Source of the DNA: Streptomyces sp. RPT161
GTDB lineage: Bacteria > Actinomycetota > Actinomycetes > Streptomycetales > Streptomycetaceae
Direction of reading: 5' to 3'
Assembly (NCBI RefSeq): GCF_027533845.1
Contig: NZ_JAPZVN010000001.1
Location: forward strand, 868,001 to 932,000
Length of the DNA: 64,000 nt
Below the pieces are notes generated by a model, which was given only the letters and a program-made list of their open reading frames with translations, was not told the DNA's origin and made no database searches. Of this stretch, positions 23,906 through 53,918 are shown one piece after another. Every line of letters starts with the position of its first letter. Within the stretch, counting starts at the first letter, position 1. A program made the translations under genes and the position numbers.

Positions 23906-25708
23906 TTGGACACCGCACGGAAACGGTCCGTCACCACACCGGCCACCGCGGACGACCCGCTGGTGGCGCTGGCCCCCGCGGTCTCGCCGCGCGAGGTCTT
24001 CCGCCGCTTCTGGCCCTGGGTACGCACGGACCGCCGCTGGCTGCTGGCCGCTACGGCGCTGCTGGCCGCGGGGGCGGGCGGTGAGGTGGTCACCGTCTGG
24101 CTGTTCAAGGACCTGATCGACCAGGTGCTGGTGCCCAGGCGGTTCGCCGCGTTCTGGCCGCTGGCCGGATGGATGGCCGCCGTGGCCGCGCTGACCGGGC
24201 TGCTGACCTTCCTCGGCGACTACACCGCGACCTGGGTCGCGGAACGTTTCATCCTGCGGCTGCGCACCGCGTGCGTGGCCCATCTGCACACCCTGCCGCC
24301 GGACACGCTGCGCACCCGCTGGCACGGCGACGTACTGGCCCGGCTGACCTCCGACATCGAACGCATCGAGTCCTTCGTCGCCTCCGGGGTGATCGACGTG
24401 GCCTCGGCGCTGATCAGCCTGGTGTTCTTCGCCACCGCGGCACTCTTCCTGAGCTGGCCCCTCGCGCTCGCGGTGTTCCTGGTCAGCCCGGTGTTCTGGC
24501 TCAGCGCACGGCACTTCGGCGGCCGGGTGCAGCGGCTGTCCCGGGAGGCGAGGCGGCGCGACGGCCGGGTCACCGCGGTGCTTGAGGAGAGCCTCGCCAA
24601 CGCGCCCGTGGCGCACGCCTACAACCAGCAGCGGCGCGAGGTCGGCCGGATCCGCCGGGAGGGCGAGGCGCTGCTGCGGGCCGAACTGGCCACCGCTCGG
24701 GTGGCCGCCGCGTACCCGGCGGTCCTGGACGTGCTGGAGGTCCTCGGCGGCCTCACCGTGGTCGGGCTCGGCGCCTTCGAACTCAGCCGGGGTGCGCTCA
24801 CCGTGGGCGGACTGCTCGCCTTCGCCGCGTTCCTCACCCAGTTGTTCGGTCCCATCCAGCAACTGTCCGGGCTGGCAACGGTGTTCGGCGCGGCGAGCGC
24901 AGGCGCGGAACGGATCATCGACCTGGCCCGGCTGCGCTCCCCCGTCAACGACCGCCCGGCGGCGGCACCGTTGCGCGCGGTGCGGGGCGAGCTGAGCTGT
25001 ACCGGGGTGCGGGCGTCGTACACCACGGGGGACGGGGCACCGGTGCTGCGGGACGTGACGTTCCGGGTGGCGCCGGGTGGGGTGCTCGCCGTGACGGGGC
25101 CGAGCGGGGCGGGCAAGTCGACGCTGGCCAAGCTGCTGGTGCGGTTCATGGATCCGGACGCGGGCGCGGTGCTCCTGGACGGCGTCGACCTGCGGGACGC
25201 GACGCTGGTGTCCGTGCGGCAGGCGGTGACGCTGCTGCCGCAGGCCTCGCAGTTGTTCTCCGCGTCCATCCGCGACAACATCGCCTACGGCCGCCCGGAC
25301 GCCACCGACGACGAGATCGTCCAGGCCGCCAGGGACGCCGACGCGGACGAATTCATCAGCGCCCTGCCGGACGGCTACCACTCGGTACTGGGTGAGCACG
25401 GCCTCCAGCTCTCCGGCGGCCAGATCCGCCGCATCACCATCGCCCGCGCCTTCCTGCGGGCCACGCCGGTGCTGGTACTGGACGAGCCCACCGCGGGCCT
25501 CGACCACGCGGCGGCGCTCCGCGTCTTCGGGCCACTGCGCCGCCTGATGGCGGGCCGCACGACGGTACTGATCACCCACGCCCCCGAACTGGCCGCACTG
25601 GCCGACGCGGTGCTCCGGCTCAACGCCGACGGAACACCGGCGGACTCCCCACCAGTCGGACGTCGTACGGGGTGCTACGACGGTCCGGCGGCGCGAGCGG
25701 GACGCTGA
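23906..25708 (+). CDS. ABC exporter, fused membrane and ATPase domains (half-transporter)
   Basis: 600 aa. Residues about 50-320 form a six-helix type-IV exporter membrane domain; the ATPase domain has Walker A GPSGAGKST at about 397-405, signature LSGGQIRRITIARAFL and Walker B VLVLDEPTAGLD. It works as a homo- or heterodimer. There is no N-terminal C39 peptidase domain. The TTG start at 23906 is supported by GAGGAGG 8 nt upstream. It resembles the exporter at 47713-49569 (shared lead-in FRRFWP-V--DRRWL), and both follow a short basic peptide gene. Cargo is unknown. Confidence 0.9.
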   Translation: MDTARKRSVTTPATADDPLVALAPAVSPREVFRRFWPWVRTDRRWLLAATALLAAGAGGEVVTVWLFKDLIDQVLVPRRFAAFWPLAGWMAAVAALTGLLTFLGDYTATWVAERFILRLRTACVAHLHTLPPDTLRTRWHGDVLARLTSDIERIESFVASGVIDVASALISLVFFATAALFLSWPLALAVFLVSPVFWLSARHFGGRVQRLSREARRRDGRVTAVLEESLANAPVAHAYNQQRREVGRIRREGEALLRAELATARVAAAYPAVLDVLEVLGGLTVVGLGAFELSRGALTVGGLLAFAAFLTQLFGPIQQLSGLATVFGAASAGAERIIDLARLRSPVNDRPAAAPLRAVRGELSCTGVRASYTTGDGAPVLRDVTFRVAPGGVLAVTGPSGAGKSTLAKLLVRFMDPDAGAVLLDGVDLRDATLVSVRQAVTLLPQASQLFSASIRDNIAYGRPDATDDEIVQAARDADADEFISALPDGYHSVLGEHGLQLSGGQIRRITIARAFLRATPVLVLDEPTAGLDHAAALRVFGPLRRLMAGRTTVLITHAPELAALADAVLRLNADGTPADSPPVGRRTGCYDGPAARAGR

Positions 25709-46880: not shown

Positions 46881-47642
46881 TCAGTAGCTGTTACGCGCCT
46901 GTAGCGGAAGCCGACCGGCTTCGGGACACTGCGCCTGGCCCGCCGGACGGGTGATGTCCACACCACCGTTGACGTCGAGCACGTAGCCGACCCCGCGCAC
47001 CGTGTGGATCAGCCGAGGTCGGCCGCCCGCCTCGGTCTTGCGGCGCAGGTACATCACGTAGACGTCCAGCGCGTTGGTGGTCGGCCGGTCATGCTCGCTC
47101 CACAGCGCGCTGAGCATCTGCTCACGGGCGAGCGGCTTGCGCGGATACGACAGGAACAGTTCCAGCAGCTCGAACTCGGTGCGCGTCAGGCTGAGTTCCG
47201 CCCCGTCCCGGGTTACGGTGCGCGACGGGGTGTGCATCCGCAATCCGCCGTAGGTGAGCACGGACTCCTGCTGGGCCGCGGCGGCTCGGCGCAGCAGTAC
47301 CGCGATCCGGGCGAGCAGTTCCTCGTTGACGAACGGCTTGGTCAGGTAGTCGTCGGCCCCGGCCTCCAGACCCGTGACGCAGTCGCCCACGGTGTCCCGG
47401 GCGGTGAGCATCAGCACCGGCACCTCGTTGCCCCGCGCCCGCAGGCGGCGGCAGACGGTCAGGCCGTCGGTGCCCGGCAGCAGCACATCCAGCACCACGA
47501 GGTCCGGGCGGTGCGTCTCCAGTGCCCGAAGGGCCTGCTCGCCGTCCATCGCCAGCAGCACCTCGTAGCCGCGCCGCTGCAGGATGAGTTCCAGGGCGTG
47601 GCGGATCGCCGGTTCGTCGTCAACCACGAGGACACAGGTCAC
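46881..47642 (-). CDS. Response regulator, OmpR/PhoB family, without adjacent kinase
   Basis: 253 aa. The receiver has Asp8-Asp9, phosphoacceptor Asp52, Thr80 and Lys102. The C-terminal winged helix includes LTRTEFELLELFLSYPRKPLAREQML, VYVMYLRRKTEAGGRPRLIHTVRGVGYVLD. GTG at 47642 follows GAAGGAGG. It lies 70 nt downstream of the exporter gene and no histidine kinase is next to it, so its phosphodonor is unknown. A 35-residue tail follows the DNA-binding domain. Confidence 0.92.
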   Translation of the reverse strand: MTCVLVVDDEPAIRHALELILQRRGYEVLLAMDGEQALRALETHRPDLVVLDVLLPGTDGLTVCRRLRARGNEVPVLMLTARDTVGDCVTGLEAGADDYLTKPFVNEELLARIAVLLRRAAAAQQESVLTYGGLRMHTPSRTVTRDGAELSLTRTEFELLELFLSYPRKPLAREQMLSALWSEHDRPTTNALDVYVMYLRRKTEAGGRPRLIHTVRGVGYVLDVNGGVDITRPAGQAQCPEAGRLPLQARNSY

Positions 47643-47712
47643 CGGGGCCTCCTTCGATCGCTGGGGGCCGCACAAAGCGGCGCGGGGTCCCTCCAGGGGG
47701 TACGTAAATCGG

Positions 47713-49569
47713 TCACGCCCGGGCCTCCTGCCGCGCGGAGTGCAGTTCCGCGTAGACGCTTCGGCGGCCCAGCAGTTCCGCGTGCCCGCCGTGCTCCACC
47801 AGGCGTCCGCCGTCGAGTACGAGGATCCGGTCGGCGTCCGGGGCCAGCTGCAGATCGTGGGTGATCATGATCGTGGTGCGGCCCGCCATCAGCCGGCGCA
47901 GCGGGCTGATGACCCGGCGGGCGGCGACCGCGTCCAGACCCGCGGTCGGCTCGTCCAGCACGAGCACCCGGGCGTCGCGCAGCATCGCGCGGGCGATGGC
48001 GATGCGCTGCAGCTGACCGCCGGAGAGCCGGGCGGTGTGCGGGTCGATCAGGGTGTCGTAGCCGTCCGGCAGGGCGGTGACGAAGTCATGGGCGTCGGCG
48101 TTGCGGGCCGCCTCGACGATCTCCGCCCGGCTGGCGCCCGGCCGCCCGCAGCCGATGTTCTCGGCGATGGTGTCGTGCAGGATCAGGGTCTGCTGCGGCA
48201 GCAGGGCGACGTGGCGGCGCAGGAAGCCCAACGGCAGCGCGTCCAGCGGTACCCCGTCCAGGCGCACGGTGCCGGTGTCCGGGTCGTAGAAGCGCAGCAG
48301 CAGCTTGGCGAACGTGGACTTGCCCGCACCGCTGGGGCCGGTGACCAGCACCAGTTCGCCGGGCCGGGCCTCGAAGCTGATCCCCCTCAGGGCGTCGCAC
48401 GTGGCGCCCGGGTAGCGGAAGCCGACGTCGGTGAGCGTGACGGTGCCGTGTACGCGCCGGGGGTTGACGGGGTGCGGCGGATCGCTGACGGCCGGTTCGG
48501 TGTCCAGGATCTCCAGCAGCCGCTCGGCGCCCGCGGTGGCCGCCTGGAGGGTCAGCCCCAGGTTGCCCAGCGACTGGATGGGCGGATAGAGGTAGCCGAG
48601 GAAGGCGGCGAAGGCGAGCAGCTGCCCGATTGTCAGCCGGTGCTGGGCGATCTCCCAGGCGCCGAGTCCGATCACCGCCAGCACGCACAGGGTCTCCACG
48701 ACCTGGACGATCTGCTGGTACAGCTCGGTCAGCCGGGCGCCGGTCACCGAGGCCCGCAGCCAGGCGCGGGCCTCACGGCGCAGCCGCCTCTCCTCGGCGC
48801 GCTTACGGTTGTACGCCTGGGTGAGCACGATGTTGCCCAGCGACTCCTCAAGCACCGAGGTGATCGCCCCGTCCGCGACCCGTTCCGCCCGCGCCACGCG
48901 TTTGATCCGACCGGAGAACCGTCTCGCCGCGAGCCAGAACAGCGGCGCCAGGCAGAAGGTGGCCAGCGCCAGTTGCCAGCACAGCCAGAGCGCGGCGGCG
49001 GCGTAGAACACCACGCTGAACAGGGCCGAGATGGTGCCGACCACACCGGTGAGCACCAGTTGCTCGATGACCGCGACGTCCCCGGTGAGCCGCTCGACCA
49101 GGTCGCCGAGCCGGTGCCGGGCGAAGAAGTCCGGAGGCAGGTCCTGGAGGTGGCCGAAGACCCGGGCGCGCAGCCGCATCACGAAGCGCTCGGCGGTCCA
49201 CACCGCCAGCGAGTTGCCCAGGTACCCGATGACCGCGCCCAGGACCGTCACCGCGAGCCACTCTCCGGCCGGGTGCCAGAAAGCGGCTACCGAACCGGTG
49301 CGCAGGGCGTGGTCGGTCAGCTCGCTGAACAGCAGGATGGCGGCGGTCTCACCGAGCGCGGCCAGTACGACGCACACGCAGATGACCGCGAGCCAGCGGC
49401 GGTCGCCCTTCACCAACGGCCAGAAGCGGCGGAACGCCTGCCGCACAGCGACGCCGCTGACCCGCTGGGTGTTCTCCTCGCTTTCCGCGCCATCGGCGTG
49501 TTCCGCGTTTTCTTTTTCCGCGCCAATTCGCTTTTCGGAATCGCGCTCCTGGTAACCGCTCAACGCCAC
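47713..49569 (-). CDS. ABC exporter, fused membrane and ATPase domains (second copy)
   Basis: 618 aa. A cytoplasmic lead-in of about 45 residues, then a six-helix exporter domain, then an ATPase domain with Walker A GPSGAGKST at about 411-419, signature LSGGQLQRIAIARAML and Walker B VLVLDEPTAGLDAV. It is similar throughout to the exporter at 23906-25708, with shared lead-in and ATPase end. No peptidase domain is present. The GTG at 49569 has a weak ribosome-binding site; translation may depend on the upstream peptide gene 74 nt before it. Confidence 0.88.
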   Translation of the reverse strand: MALSGYQERDSEKRIGAEKENAEHADGAESEENTQRVSGVAVRQAFRRFWPLVKGDRRWLAVICVCVVLAALGETAAILLFSELTDHALRTGSVAAFWHPAGEWLAVTVLGAVIGYLGNSLAVWTAERFVMRLRARVFGHLQDLPPDFFARHRLGDLVERLTGDVAVIEQLVLTGVVGTISALFSVVFYAAAALWLCWQLALATFCLAPLFWLAARRFSGRIKRVARAERVADGAITSVLEESLGNIVLTQAYNRKRAEERRLRREARAWLRASVTGARLTELYQQIVQVVETLCVLAVIGLGAWEIAQHRLTIGQLLAFAAFLGYLYPPIQSLGNLGLTLQAATAGAERLLEILDTEPAVSDPPHPVNPRRVHGTVTLTDVGFRYPGATCDALRGISFEARPGELVLVTGPSGAGKSTFAKLLLRFYDPDTGTVRLDGVPLDALPLGFLRRHVALLPQQTLILHDTIAENIGCGRPGASRAEIVEAARNADAHDFVTALPDGYDTLIDPHTARLSGGQLQRIAIARAMLRDARVLVLDEPTAGLDAVAARRVISPLRRLMAGRTTIMITHDLQLAPDADRILVLDGGRLVEHGGHAELLGRRSVYAELHSARQEARA

Positions 49570-49595
49570 CCCGCTTGCGCCGTGGACGAGTTGAC

Positions 49596-49630
49596 GGCGG
49601 GACCGCGGCGTGCCCCGCCGCGGTCCCGCC
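49596..49630 (-). terminator. Hairpin between second peptide gene and its exporter
   Basis: A perfect 14-bp stem (49596-49609 and 49617-49630) with a 7-nt loop and no T-run. Its position matches the hairpin at 23837-23868 in the other peptide/exporter pair. Confidence 0.65.
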
Positions 49631-49643
49631 GGTTATGGCTCGA

Positions 49644-49787
49644 TCAGCAAACGGGGCGACGGCGCGGGTGGCGCCGGTCCACCGGCTTGTGGCACTCGTG
49701 CTTGGGCTCGCCCACCGGACGGTGCTTCTTCGGGGGCTCCGGGTGACGACGCTTGACGACGATCGGAACGATCCGACGGAAAGTCAT
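49644..49787 (-). CDS. Small Arg/Lys/Pro/His-rich peptide ending in Cys (candidate secreted peptide)
   Basis: 47-residue frame with GGAGG 6 nt before its ATG. The peptide starts MTFRRIVPIVVKRRHPEPPK and ends HPRRRPVC; it has eleven Arg, six Lys, six His, eight Pro and two Cys (32 and 47). It has no signal peptide. It precedes an ABC exporter and a regulator on the same strand. I do not recognise the family; a proline/arginine-rich antimicrobial or signal peptide is one reading. Confidence 0.6.
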   Translation of the reverse strand: MTFRRIVPIVVKRRHPEPPKKHRPVGEPKHECHKPVDRRHPRRRPVC

Positions 49788-49812
49788 GATGTCCTCCGCA
49801 TTCAATGGCCAA

Positions 49813-49857
49813 CCCGACTGCTGTCGGATTTCCGCCGCCTACTTCCGGCGGCGACAG
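49813..49857 (-). promoter_or_regulatory. Mutually exclusive hairpins upstream of the peptide ribosome-binding site
   Basis: On the minus strand CTGTCG pairs with CGACAG and, inside, CGCCGCC with GGCGGCG (49821-49857). The same CCGACAG segment can pair instead with a following GTCGG (49813-49826). The two structures cannot form together, which is the arrangement of an attenuator or translational switch. Confidence 0.4.
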
Positions 49858-49920
49858 AAAGAACGCTACACGGCCGGCGGAGCCCAGGAAGCCAATTCCC
49901 GTGAATTAGGGCTTAGAGAT

Positions 49921-49950
49921 ATATGAGGTTTTCTAAGAATGCCTTTTCAA
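49921..49950 (-). promoter_or_regulatory. Candidate sigma-70-like promoter for the second peptide/exporter operon
   Basis: On the minus strand TTGAAA (49950-49945) is followed after 18 nt by TCATAT (49926-49921). Spacing and sequence fit a vegetative-type promoter and the segment is locally AT-rich. Confidence 0.45.
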
Positions 49951-52391: not shown

Positions 52392-53918
52392 TCAGCGGAA
52401 CTCGCGCAGCCGCAGCCGTACGCCGACGGCGGCCAGCGCCAGCGCCACCGCCGTACCGGCGATGACCAGGACCAGCGACGAGTCCAACTCCGACTGACCG
52501 CTGGAGACCGCGTCGGCGAACGCGTGGTCGTTGATCGCGATGTCGTCCTTCATCGCGTCGTCCCACTGCTGGAACGTGTAGTTCGAACCGCCCCTGGCCC
52601 AGCTGGTGTTGAGACGGATGGCCTGGTCGAGCCGTCCGGCGGCGACGTACTCGCGGGTGGTGCGGTCGACGTGCTCGTAGTCCACCCAGGCGGACAGCGC
52701 GCGCTCGGCGGCCGAACCCTCGCCGGGAAAGGTGATGTTGCGGAACTCGGTGCCCAGGTAGCCGCCGAACCGCACATCGTTGTGGTCGGCTAGGTAGGCC
52801 TGCCGCGCGGCGGCGACGTCCGAGGAGTACGTCGCCGGACTTGAGCCGTTGATCTGGGCGATCTCCTGGGACTTTCCGAAGAAGGCGTCCGAGTACTGGC
52901 CGCTGCGCTGGGCGTCCAGCAGGTTGCGGCTCTCGTCGGCGTTGGCGTCGTAGCCCACCGCGCGGGCGGCCGACAGCGCGACCACCGAGTCGAAGGCGTC
53001 GTGCCGGGCGATGCCCAGCTGGTGCTGCTCGTCGCCGGACATGGTGACGGCGGTGCCGATGACCGCCGCACACAGCAGGGTCGCGGCGGCCAGCGCCGGG
53101 TTGACCAGCCGGCGGAAGCGCCCGGTGATGAACACCTGCAGCGCGACGAGCGCGCCGAGGGTGAGCAGGCCCAGGCCGAGCGCGGCCCACCGCAGATCGG
53201 ACAGCAGTCCGCGCTCGTCGTCGTAAGTGGCCGTGAACGACGCGTTGTTGGCGTTGATCAACTTGTTCGCCGCCGGAAGCAGCGAATCCCGCATCAGGTC
53301 CGTGGCCTGGCGGTACGCGGTGAGGGCGGCCGGCGCCGGGTGCCCCGCGGGGGCGCCGGCCTGGTCGTTGAGCGAGGTGGCCCGGGAGGCGAGTTCCTCG
53401 TACTGGCCGAGCCCGTCCAGGATCCCCACCAGCGCGTTCTGCGCCGCGGCGTCGTTACCGGCGGAGCGGGTGGCGCCCTGCAGCTCGGTGCTGACCGAGT
53501 CACGGTCCTGGGCGTAGAGCTTCCGCGCCTGCGCGCGGGCACCGGCCAGGTCCATGGCGTTGCCGAAGACCAGGATGTTCGCGGTCTCGGCGTCCATGTC
53601 GGTGAGGGCCAGGTACAGCCCGGACGCGTGCCGGACCTGCGGGGCCAGCCGCTGCTGGATGCTGGTCCAACTGCCGCTGGTGTGGGCCGGGATCGCGGCG
53701 CACAGCGCGCCGAGCGCGATGACCAGGGCCAGGACCACCGTCAGCGCGGCGCGCAGCGTCGCGGGGACACTGCGGCGGCGCGGGCGTATTGCGCGCGGCT
53801 GCCGGCTGGGGGCGGGTGTGCGGCTGGGTGGCGTCGGCACCTTCGCGCTCGCCCGCGTTCGCGTCTGCGTCGCCGCCTCGGTGACGCGCCTGCCAGCAGT
53901 CGTGATGGTCTCCGCCAC
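52392..53918 (-). CDS. Membrane protein with two extracytoplasmic helical domains and no output domain
   Basis: 508 aa, no named family recognised. A basic, Pro/Arg-rich cytoplasmic tail (residues 1-50) leads to a helix (about 54-78), an extracytoplasmic helical region of about 160 residues, two adjacent helices (about 235-290), a second helical region of about 180 residues, a final helix and a short basic end. The two outer regions look like four-helix-bundle sensor domains of chemoreceptors, but no HAMP, kinase or other signalling domain follows. It sits between menG and the mqn genes; co-function is unproven. Confidence 0.75.
   Translation of the reverse strand: MAETITTAGRRVTEAATQTRTRASAKVPTPPSRTPAPSRQPRAIRPRRRSVPATLRAALTVVLALVIALGALCAAIPAHTSGSWTSIQQRLAPQVRHASGLYLALTDMDAETANILVFGNAMDLAGARAQARKLYAQDRDSVSTELQGATRSAGNDAAAQNALVGILDGLGQYEELASRATSLNDQAGAPAGHPAPAALTAYRQATDLMRDSLLPAANKLINANNASFTATYDDERGLLSDLRWAALGLGLLTLGALVALQVFITGRFRRLVNPALAAATLLCAAVIGTAVTMSGDEQHQLGIARHDAFDSVVALSAARAVGYDANADESRNLLDAQRSGQYSDAFFGKSQEIAQINGSSPATYSSDVAAARQAYLADHNDVRFGGYLGTEFRNITFPGEGSAAERALSAWVDYEHVDRTTREYVAAGRLDQAIRLNTSWARGGSNYTFQQWDDAMKDDIAINDHAFADAVSSGQSELDSSLVLVIAGTAVALALAAVGVRLRLREFR

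What the first reader, a model, noticed from the sequence alone, without database searches (positions are those of the whole stretch)
46881..49950. Second peptide/exporter operon ends in an orphan OmpR-type response regulator
The order promoter, 47-aa Pro/Arg-rich peptide, hairpin, exporter and response regulator, all on one strand, resembles peptide-signalling systems, but no histidine kinase is adjacent. The regulator keeps all phosphorylation residues, so a distant kinase or another input is needed.
Basis: partly seen in the sequence, partly recalled or inferred. Interest (0 to 1): 0.6.

Follow-up and report, generated by a model that had tools for sequence, protein, structure and literature searches.

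The report
Basic mini-peptide, exporter and orphan regulator
A short, strongly basic peptide gene sits just before a membrane pump gene and a regulator gene, and many related soil bacteria carry the same peptide-and-pump pair, often under a shared switch, so it is probably an unrecognised kind of exported peptide whose job is still unknown.

Summary
In detail: on the minus strand lie a 47-aa Pro/Arg/Lys/His-rich ORF, a strong GC hairpin, an MsbA-type ABC exporter without C39 peptidase, and an OmpR-type response regulator (RR) with no kinase found nearby. Of 63 orthologous exporter loci, 62 have such a peptide upstream (58 by motif, 4 by eye; the 63rd is cut by a contig end), 1-3 copies each, with variable low-complexity bodies and a conserved N-terminus (M[ST]F-x-K-[IV]-x-P). 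Pooled pN is below pS. A covarying hairpin follows most last copies. An operator, TCTMAS-N4-AATTMA-N6-TCTMAS, has 14 exact hits in 388 genomes (control 0): 10 before peptide-exporter operons, 3 before family peptides elsewhere (2 of them truncated), 1 cut off. With one mismatch, two more lone peptide genes appear. Lone copies argue against the main rival, a BmrB-like cis leader peptide. The RR is in 4 of 63 loci; all four copies lie beside this exporter. Best reading: an unmodified cationic peptide exported by its own pump and controlled by an OmpR-type regulator. Export, activity and RR function are inferred.

The parts
49863..49938 (-). Putative operator and promoter: TCTTAG-N15-TCTAAG (49938-49912), TCTAAG-N4-AATTCA-N3-GAATTGGC (49917-49890), TAGCGT as a -10-like element (49868-49863)
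   Evidence: Aligned by eye with conserved upstream regions of related peptide genes; only hit with up to 3 mismatches in 4 genomes including its own
49644..49787 (-). 47-aa basic peptide MTFRRIVPIVVKRRHPEPPKKHRPVGEPKHECHKPVDRRHPRRRPVC
   Evidence: ORF with SD GGAGGA; N-terminus and tail like those of relatives; no Pfam or NCBIfam family
49595..49631 (-). 16-bp GC stem-loop 12 nt after the peptide stop
   Evidence: z -5.6 for the spacer, stem; the window row is part of the covariation count
47713..49569 (-). Half-size MsbA-type ABC exporter, 618 aa, no C39 domain
   Evidence: PF00664, PF00005; 62 matches (window included) in 53 of 394 genomes at E<=1e-180
46881..47642 (-). Orphan OmpR/PhoB-type response regulator, 253 aa from GTG
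   Evidence: PF00072, PF00486; the four copies of its clade found lie beside this exporter

Best explanation
A three-gene operon makes an unmodified, leaderless, strongly cationic and probably disordered peptide and its dedicated exporter. SUPPORTED by sequence comparison: the peptide is translated and under purifying selection; its family is multi-copy (tandem, and away from the exporter in some genomes); its type tracks the exporter clade; many of its genes share one operator/promoter; a conserved stem follows most last copies; in one lineage an OmpR-type RR joined the operon. INFERRED: an OmpR-family RR (here the orphan RR, elsewhere perhaps an MprA-like RR) binds the 11-bp-phased TCTMAS/AATTMA repeats and switches on the peptide gene; most transcripts stop at the hairpin, giving much peptide and little exporter and RR; the short N-terminus MxFxKIxP is the export tag; the peptide is pumped out whole and acts outside, most likely by binding anionic envelope or matrix polymers or as a Pro/Arg/Lys-rich antimicrobial. 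Envelope stress is a plausible input, since 14 of 63 loci lie near an MprB-like kinase.
For: Peptide upstream in 62 of 63 orthologous loci (58 by motif; 4 by eye and less certain; L236 cut by a contig end); strict motif 52 of 63 against 0 of 254 control genes. Purifying selection: pooled pS 0.20, pN 0.086 over 40 non-independent pairs; Pro8 in 61 of 62 MSF/MTF-type peptides with four codons. Tandem copies in 12 loci: hairpin z<-2 after the last copy in 12 of 12, after earlier copies in 1 of 15. Stem covariation score reached by 0 of 500 shuffles in both sets. Operator: 14 exact hits in 388 genomes, control 0; lone peptide genes behind it (L275 exact; L303, L305 with one mismatch). Promoter core: 18 hits in 282 genomes, control 0; 16 followed by a family peptide, 2 cut by contig ends. 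Peptide type against exporter tree: 5 changes, shuffled mean 25.4, 0 of 200 as low. Orphan-clade RRs: 4 of 4 beside the exporter. MprB-like kinase in the flank of 14 of 63 loci.
Against: No experiment shows transcription, translation, export or activity. The RR is absent behind the exporter in 59 of 63 loci, so the unit does not need it. The exporter orthologue is patchy (53 of 394 genomes) and missing from the same-genus genomes G001 and G002. The hairpin is not universal: z<-2 after 48 of 58 last or only copies, and it is missing directly behind the peptide in L051 and L052, two of the three RR-bearing relatives (shuffles of bases, not dinucleotides). For the second set of stems the count of doubly changed cells is not above shuffles (77 of 500), and the stems were chosen on the same alignments. 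The operator is met in a minority of loci (19 of 63 in a relaxed form); a looser form is at background in 4 genomes; the window's copy is shifted by one half-site; one of 14 one-mismatch hits is not before a peptide (L304). No double repeat lies before mprA or pepD in the fetched loci. Near-copies inflate the tree test. That the peptide is the cargo rests on adjacency and matching clades.
Confidence: 0.6

Rival explanations
1. The 47-aa ORF is a regulatory leader peptide in cis, as in bmrB-bmrCD: ribosome pausing in it decides whether the hairpin stops transcription before the multidrug exporter.
For: Small ORF, strong hairpin 12 nt after its stop, then an MsbA-type exporter. The 3' end of the peptide ORF can pair over 14 bp with the exporter start region in the predicted fold. 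BmrB precedent: abstract and outline of PMC4191407.
Against: Peptide genes with the same operator occur with no exporter in the 1.5 kb flanks held (L275, L303, L305), each followed by a terminator-like stem seen by eye in the sequence. Tandem copies carry the hairpin after the last copy (12 of 12) and hardly after earlier ones (1 of 15). Bodies vary from K/P/A-rich to G/R/Y-rich, so no common stalling motif is seen. Antiterminator pairing was not tested.
Confidence: 0.12
2. A peptide-signalling (quorum) circuit: the exported peptide is sensed by a distant kinase that phosphorylates the orphan RR, which turns on its own operon.
For: RR behind peptide and exporter in 4 loci of 2 genera, its start overlapping the exporter stop in three. 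Complete phosphorylation site.
Against: RR absent from 59 of 63 loci; no kinase found nearby; peptide bodies vary widely; no partner kinase identified.
Confidence: 0.12
3. The exporter is a self-protection or multidrug pump; the peptide stays in the cell and acts there (nucleic-acid binding or modulation of the pump).
For: Basic, low-complexity peptides resemble nucleic-acid-binding tails (recalled); the exporter's best solved relatives are ABCB1- and MsbA-type pumps.
Against: Peptide type follows the exporter clade, and the pairing is seen in other actinobacterial families, as expected of cargo and carrier, though also of two proteins that bind each other.
Confidence: 0.14

Closest known systems
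Phenol-soluble modulins and their Pmt ABC exporter (Staphylococcus)
   Same: Short peptides with their own ABC exporter under dedicated regulation (abstract and outline of PMC5080381; that they are leaderless and encoded at several places is recalled).
   Different: Here one half-size MsbA-type exporter, basic low-complexity peptides, and an OmpR-like direct-repeat operator instead of a GntR-type repressor.
bmrB-bmrCD of Bacillus subtilis
   Same: Small ORF, stem-loops and ABC exporter genes transcribed together (PMC4191407, abstract and outline).
   Different: Here peptide genes also occur alone and in tandem, with a conserved protein N-terminus.
MprAB-PepD envelope-stress system of Actinobacteria
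   Same: The orphan RR's nearest own-genome paralogue is MprA (60%); 14 of 63 loci lie near an MprB-like kinase. mprAB and pepD are up under acid stress in S. albulus (passages of PMC7317143).
   Different: The orphan RR is a separate clade with a different alpha-1 helix and no kinase beside it.
Double-glycine/C39 peptide exporters of bacteriocin and pheromone systems
   Same: Peptide plus ABC exporter in one operon.
   Different: No C39 domain, no kinase found nearby, OmpR-type instead of LytTR-type regulator.

Membership tests
bmrB-type leader-peptide attenuation | Small ORF then stem-loop then exporter | tested here: met
bmrB-type leader-peptide attenuation | ORF exists only in cis, before the gene it controls | tested here: not met
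   Lone peptide genes L275, L303, L305 behind the same operator, no exporter in the 1.5 kb flanks held; L281/L302 also but cut by contig ends. Tested in relatives, not for the window's own copy
bmrB-type leader-peptide attenuation | Alternative antiterminator structure and antibiotic induction | not tested
   No antiterminator search was run; induction needs experiments
Leaderless peptide with dedicated ABC exporter (PSM/Pmt kind) | No cleavable leader and no peptidase domain in the exporter | tested here: inconclusive
   No C39 domain, no double glycine in the window peptide; processing cannot be excluded by sequence
Leaderless peptide with dedicated ABC exporter (PSM/Pmt kind) | Peptide leaves the cell through the linked exporter | not testable with these tools
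   Only adjacency and clade matching
Modified ribosomal peptide (RiPP) cluster | Modifying enzyme beside the precursor | tested here: not met
   Pfam of neighbours shows nuo genes, UbiE, an FAD reductase, DUF4232, NlpC/P60 and a radical-SAM CofH/MqnC-type protein 5 kb away that fits the menaquinone genes; a distant enzyme is not excluded
MprA response regulators | Paired MprB kinase | tested here: not met
   No kinase found near; own-genome MprA has MprB and PepD elsewhere, on C53
MprA response regulators | Falls inside the MprA clade | tested here: not met
   Separate 100/100 clade of 4 in a 14-row tree whose deeper forks are unresolved
OmpR/PhoB-type response regulator | Receiver plus winged-helix C-terminal domain with intact phosphorylation site | tested here: met
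   PF00072 and PF00486; residues read in the sequence

The most novel reading that the evidence does not exclude
A system spread through several actinobacterial families in which fast-changing, low-complexity cationic micro-peptides, in some genomes read from one dedicated regulon of dispersed genes, are exported unmodified by a matching MsbA-type pump: in effect ribosomal counterparts of poly-lysine, used as envelope- or matrix-binding polycations or as antimicrobials and tuned by MprA-type envelope-stress regulators.
Probability: 0.35. Interest if true: 0.8.

Novelty: new variant of a known kind. Interest (0 to 1): 0.62.

Why it matters
Micro-peptide genes of low complexity are easily missed by annotation: none of the peptides tested (the window's and 10 relatives) matches a Pfam or NCBIfam family, and no paper listed by my searches describes them. 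If the peptides are exported, Streptomyces and kin have a secreted-peptide system with its own pump, operator and, in some, its own regulator. The operator and promoter core give a direct way to find its genes, and an orphan regulator sitting in the operon it may control is a clean test case for orphan two-component regulators.

Tried and rejected
Peptide alone as a query: no second convincing hit in 61 genomes; the other hits (E 0.008 and above) look like chance matches of basic stretches. MprA autoregulation by the same operator: no copy before mprA or pepD in the fetched loci. Reported C. glutamicum MprA motif TKTTAAGAAM (PMC12113857, passages): its complement resembles the window's TTCTTAGAAA by eye only; not tested. 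Looser operator search in 4 genomes: hits no more numerous than the control, so only the strict form is used. Plasmid collection: one record, Nonomuraea gerenzanensis, without annotation there; it has a basic 38-aa ORF upstream. Paper searches: 41 gave none; others (15 of 17 listed; 4 of 4; 8 of 69; 15 of 153) listed nothing on the system; others gave the comparison papers. The RR tree holds only 14 rows because my text filter dropped many MprA rows. In one search locus L259 was anchored wrongly, so its upstream was not properly seen. No structure prediction, fold search, PHROGs or PADLOC search was run.
Full report
OBSERVATION. On the minus strand of the window the order is peptide (49787-49644, 47 aa), GC hairpin (about 49631-49595), ABC exporter (49569-47713), OmpR-type response regulator (GTG 47642-46881). 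Pfam gives ABC_membrane + ABC_tran for the exporter and Response_reg + Trans_reg_C for the regulator; the peptide has no family (NCBIfam). No kinase domain appears in the 17 neighbouring ORFs scanned; not every ORF between 36.7 and 61.1 kb was scanned. The stretch between peptide and exporter folds with z = -5.6. A sigma-70 consensus scan finds no promoter.

RELATIVES. The window lies in a 7.69-Mb genome. A contig of G392 (genus code g10) has the length and match coordinates of an S. natalensis contig found by name, so I take g10 to be Streptomyces and the family to be Streptomycetaceae; this is inference. Exporter matches at E<=1e-180 occur in 53 of 394 family genomes, 62 matches with the window's; with L064 (56% identity) this makes 63 loci. 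The two other same-genus genomes have none. The second exporter of the window (23906-25708) is 49% identical and belongs to a sister group.

PEPTIDE FAMILY. A relaxed motif finds 73 SD-led peptide ORFs upstream of the exporter in 58 of 63 loci. Four more were read by eye and are less certain: L054, L053 and L194 (GTG starts), L219 (weak SD). L236 has under 100 nt upstream before its contig ends. A strict motif finds 52 of 63 against 0 of 254 other genes in the same loci; the motif came from these same data. Of 62 MSF/MTF-type peptides, position 5 is Lys in 55 and position 8 is Pro in 61, the Pro spread over four codons. Pooled pS is 0.20 and pN 0.086 over the 40 closest pairs, which share sequences. 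Bodies are K/P/A-rich, Pro/Lys-rich with PPP, or R/G/Y/D-rich; many K/P/A-type peptides end in or near RRP[VI]. In the sister exporter group I count, by eye and without a control, a short low-complexity peptide in 28 of 34 loci (with L069), some of them neutral rather than basic, among them the window's first operon. Outside the family, 10 of 12 loci examined have a short basic or low-complexity ORF upstream by eye (those loci come from 11 genomes), and so has Nonomuraea gerenzanensis. Peptide type follows the exporter tree: 5 changes among 57 labelled rows (least possible 3), shuffled mean 25.4, 0 of 200 as low; near-copies contribute to this, and the tree is a quick one with some long branches.

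HAIRPIN. The 70 nt after the peptide stop fold with z below -2 for 49 of 73 copies, that is 48 of 58 last or only copies and 1 of 15 earlier copies; within the 12 tandem loci it is 12 of 12 against 1 of 15 (base shuffles). The 10 misses include L051 and L052, two of the three relatives that share the RR. In 12 PPP-clade loci 96% of cells pair and 6 of 14 pairs change on both sides; in 21 other loci including the window 98% pair and 3 of 12 pairs change on both sides. The covariation score was reached by 0 of 500 shuffles in both, but the count of doubly changed cells was reached by 77 of 500, and I chose the stems on these alignments. Lone peptide genes L275, L303 and L305 are followed by similar inverted repeats, seen by eye (sequence). 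I read the stem as the peptide gene's own leaky terminator, which would make peptide mRNA more abundant than exporter mRNA; this is inference.

OPERATOR AND LONE GENES. Upstream of the first peptide many relatives share direct repeats and a promoter core. A relaxed repeat occurs within 900 nt upstream in 19 of 63 loci and once in 1.2 million strand-bases elsewhere in these loci. The strict form TCTMAS-N4-AATTMA-N6-TCTMAS, exact, has 14 hits in 13 of 388 genomes and 0 for the reversed control: 10 before peptide-exporter operons (by position); 1 before a complete lone peptide gene (L275, G126); 2 in G164 before nearly identical peptides cut by contig ends, perhaps one locus; 1 in G022 where the contig ends before any ORF. 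With one mismatch in 18 genomes there are 14 hits, control 0, adding two lone peptide genes (L303 in G022, L305 in G164) and one hit not before a peptide (L304). The lone genes have no exporter in the 1.5 kb flanks held. The promoter core CGTARTGTTTTCCATGTCGA has 18 hits in 15 of 282 genomes, control 0; 16 are followed by a family peptide and 2 end at a contig end. In the window's own genome the matching site occurs only before this operon. A peptide gene with its own operator and stem but no exporter behind it is hard to read as a cis leader peptide; this is the strongest result against the BmrB-like rival.

REGULATOR. The RR stands co-directionally right behind the exporter in the window, L051, L052 and L055 only; in these three relatives its first start codon overlaps the exporter stop. 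Of 388 genomes, 8 have a match at E<=1e-84: three are this orphan type beside the exporter, five are MprA-type (a kinase gene was called beside 4 of these 5). The G022 copy (L052) missed that cutoff, so the search can miss others. The orphan RRs form a 100/100 clade apart from MprA in a 14-row tree, and their alpha-1 helix ([HD]AL[EH][LM]IL-x-RRGY) differs from MprA's (EA[IL][RQ]RSLAFEGY). The own genome keeps mprA, mprB and pepD elsewhere. An MprB-like kinase lies in the flank of 14 of 63 loci; 0 of 20 sister-group loci have one, but most of those flanks are shorter. In 7 Streptomyces loci a second, different OmpR-type RR lies convergent directly behind the exporter. OmpR-family regulators commonly bind direct repeats phased by about 11 bp (recalled), which fits the operator; that this RR binds it is inferred.

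MECHANISM AND NOVELTY. Most likely the operon makes and exports an unmodified cationic peptide, with the RR as a lineage-specific controller. What the peptide does is open: polycation for envelope or matrix, or Pro/Arg/Lys-rich antimicrobial. A lead: in S. albulus mprAB and pepD rise under acid stress, and that paper cites work linking them to control of the poly-lysine synthetase gene (passages of PMC7317143). I found no description of the family in Pfam or NCBIfam or among the papers listed by searches; most subscription papers and all bioRxiv preprints are outside that library.

Noticed in passing
   Followed up: partly
window 49540-49660 (-): In the predicted fold the last codons of the peptide pair over 14 bp with the exporter start region around the hairpin, which could couple exporter translation to peptide translation; not checked in relatives.
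   Followed up: no
L197, L203, L204, L206, L207, L208, L212, just behind the exporter, convergent: A second OmpR-type response regulator (ILLADDD..), not of the window's clade, lies within about 60 nt of the exporter end in 7 Streptomyces loci; no kinase directly beside it in the four viewed.
   Followed up: partly
L051, about 1.24 kb before the exporter match, minus strand: A lone TCTCAG-N16-TCTCAC repeat lies 47 nt before a divergent 688-aa ORF, a possible further regulon member.
   Followed up: no
L275 and L303, behind the lone peptide gene: A similar small ORF (MRKSRIAL[LI]LYAIALAQ..) follows the lone peptide in two genomes.
   Followed up: no
L061 (G145): The exporter has an in-frame stop while operator and peptide look intact.
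   Followed up: no
L045 and L071, about 0.5-0.6 kb before the exporter: A similar 32-aa ORF of another kind (MV[IN]PFLFPSGFGG..PVGPLRWN) precedes two sister-group exporters in which I saw no basic peptide.
   Followed up: no
window 52392-53918 (-): A 508-aa ORF close to menaquinone-related genes has no Pfam match.
   Followed up: no
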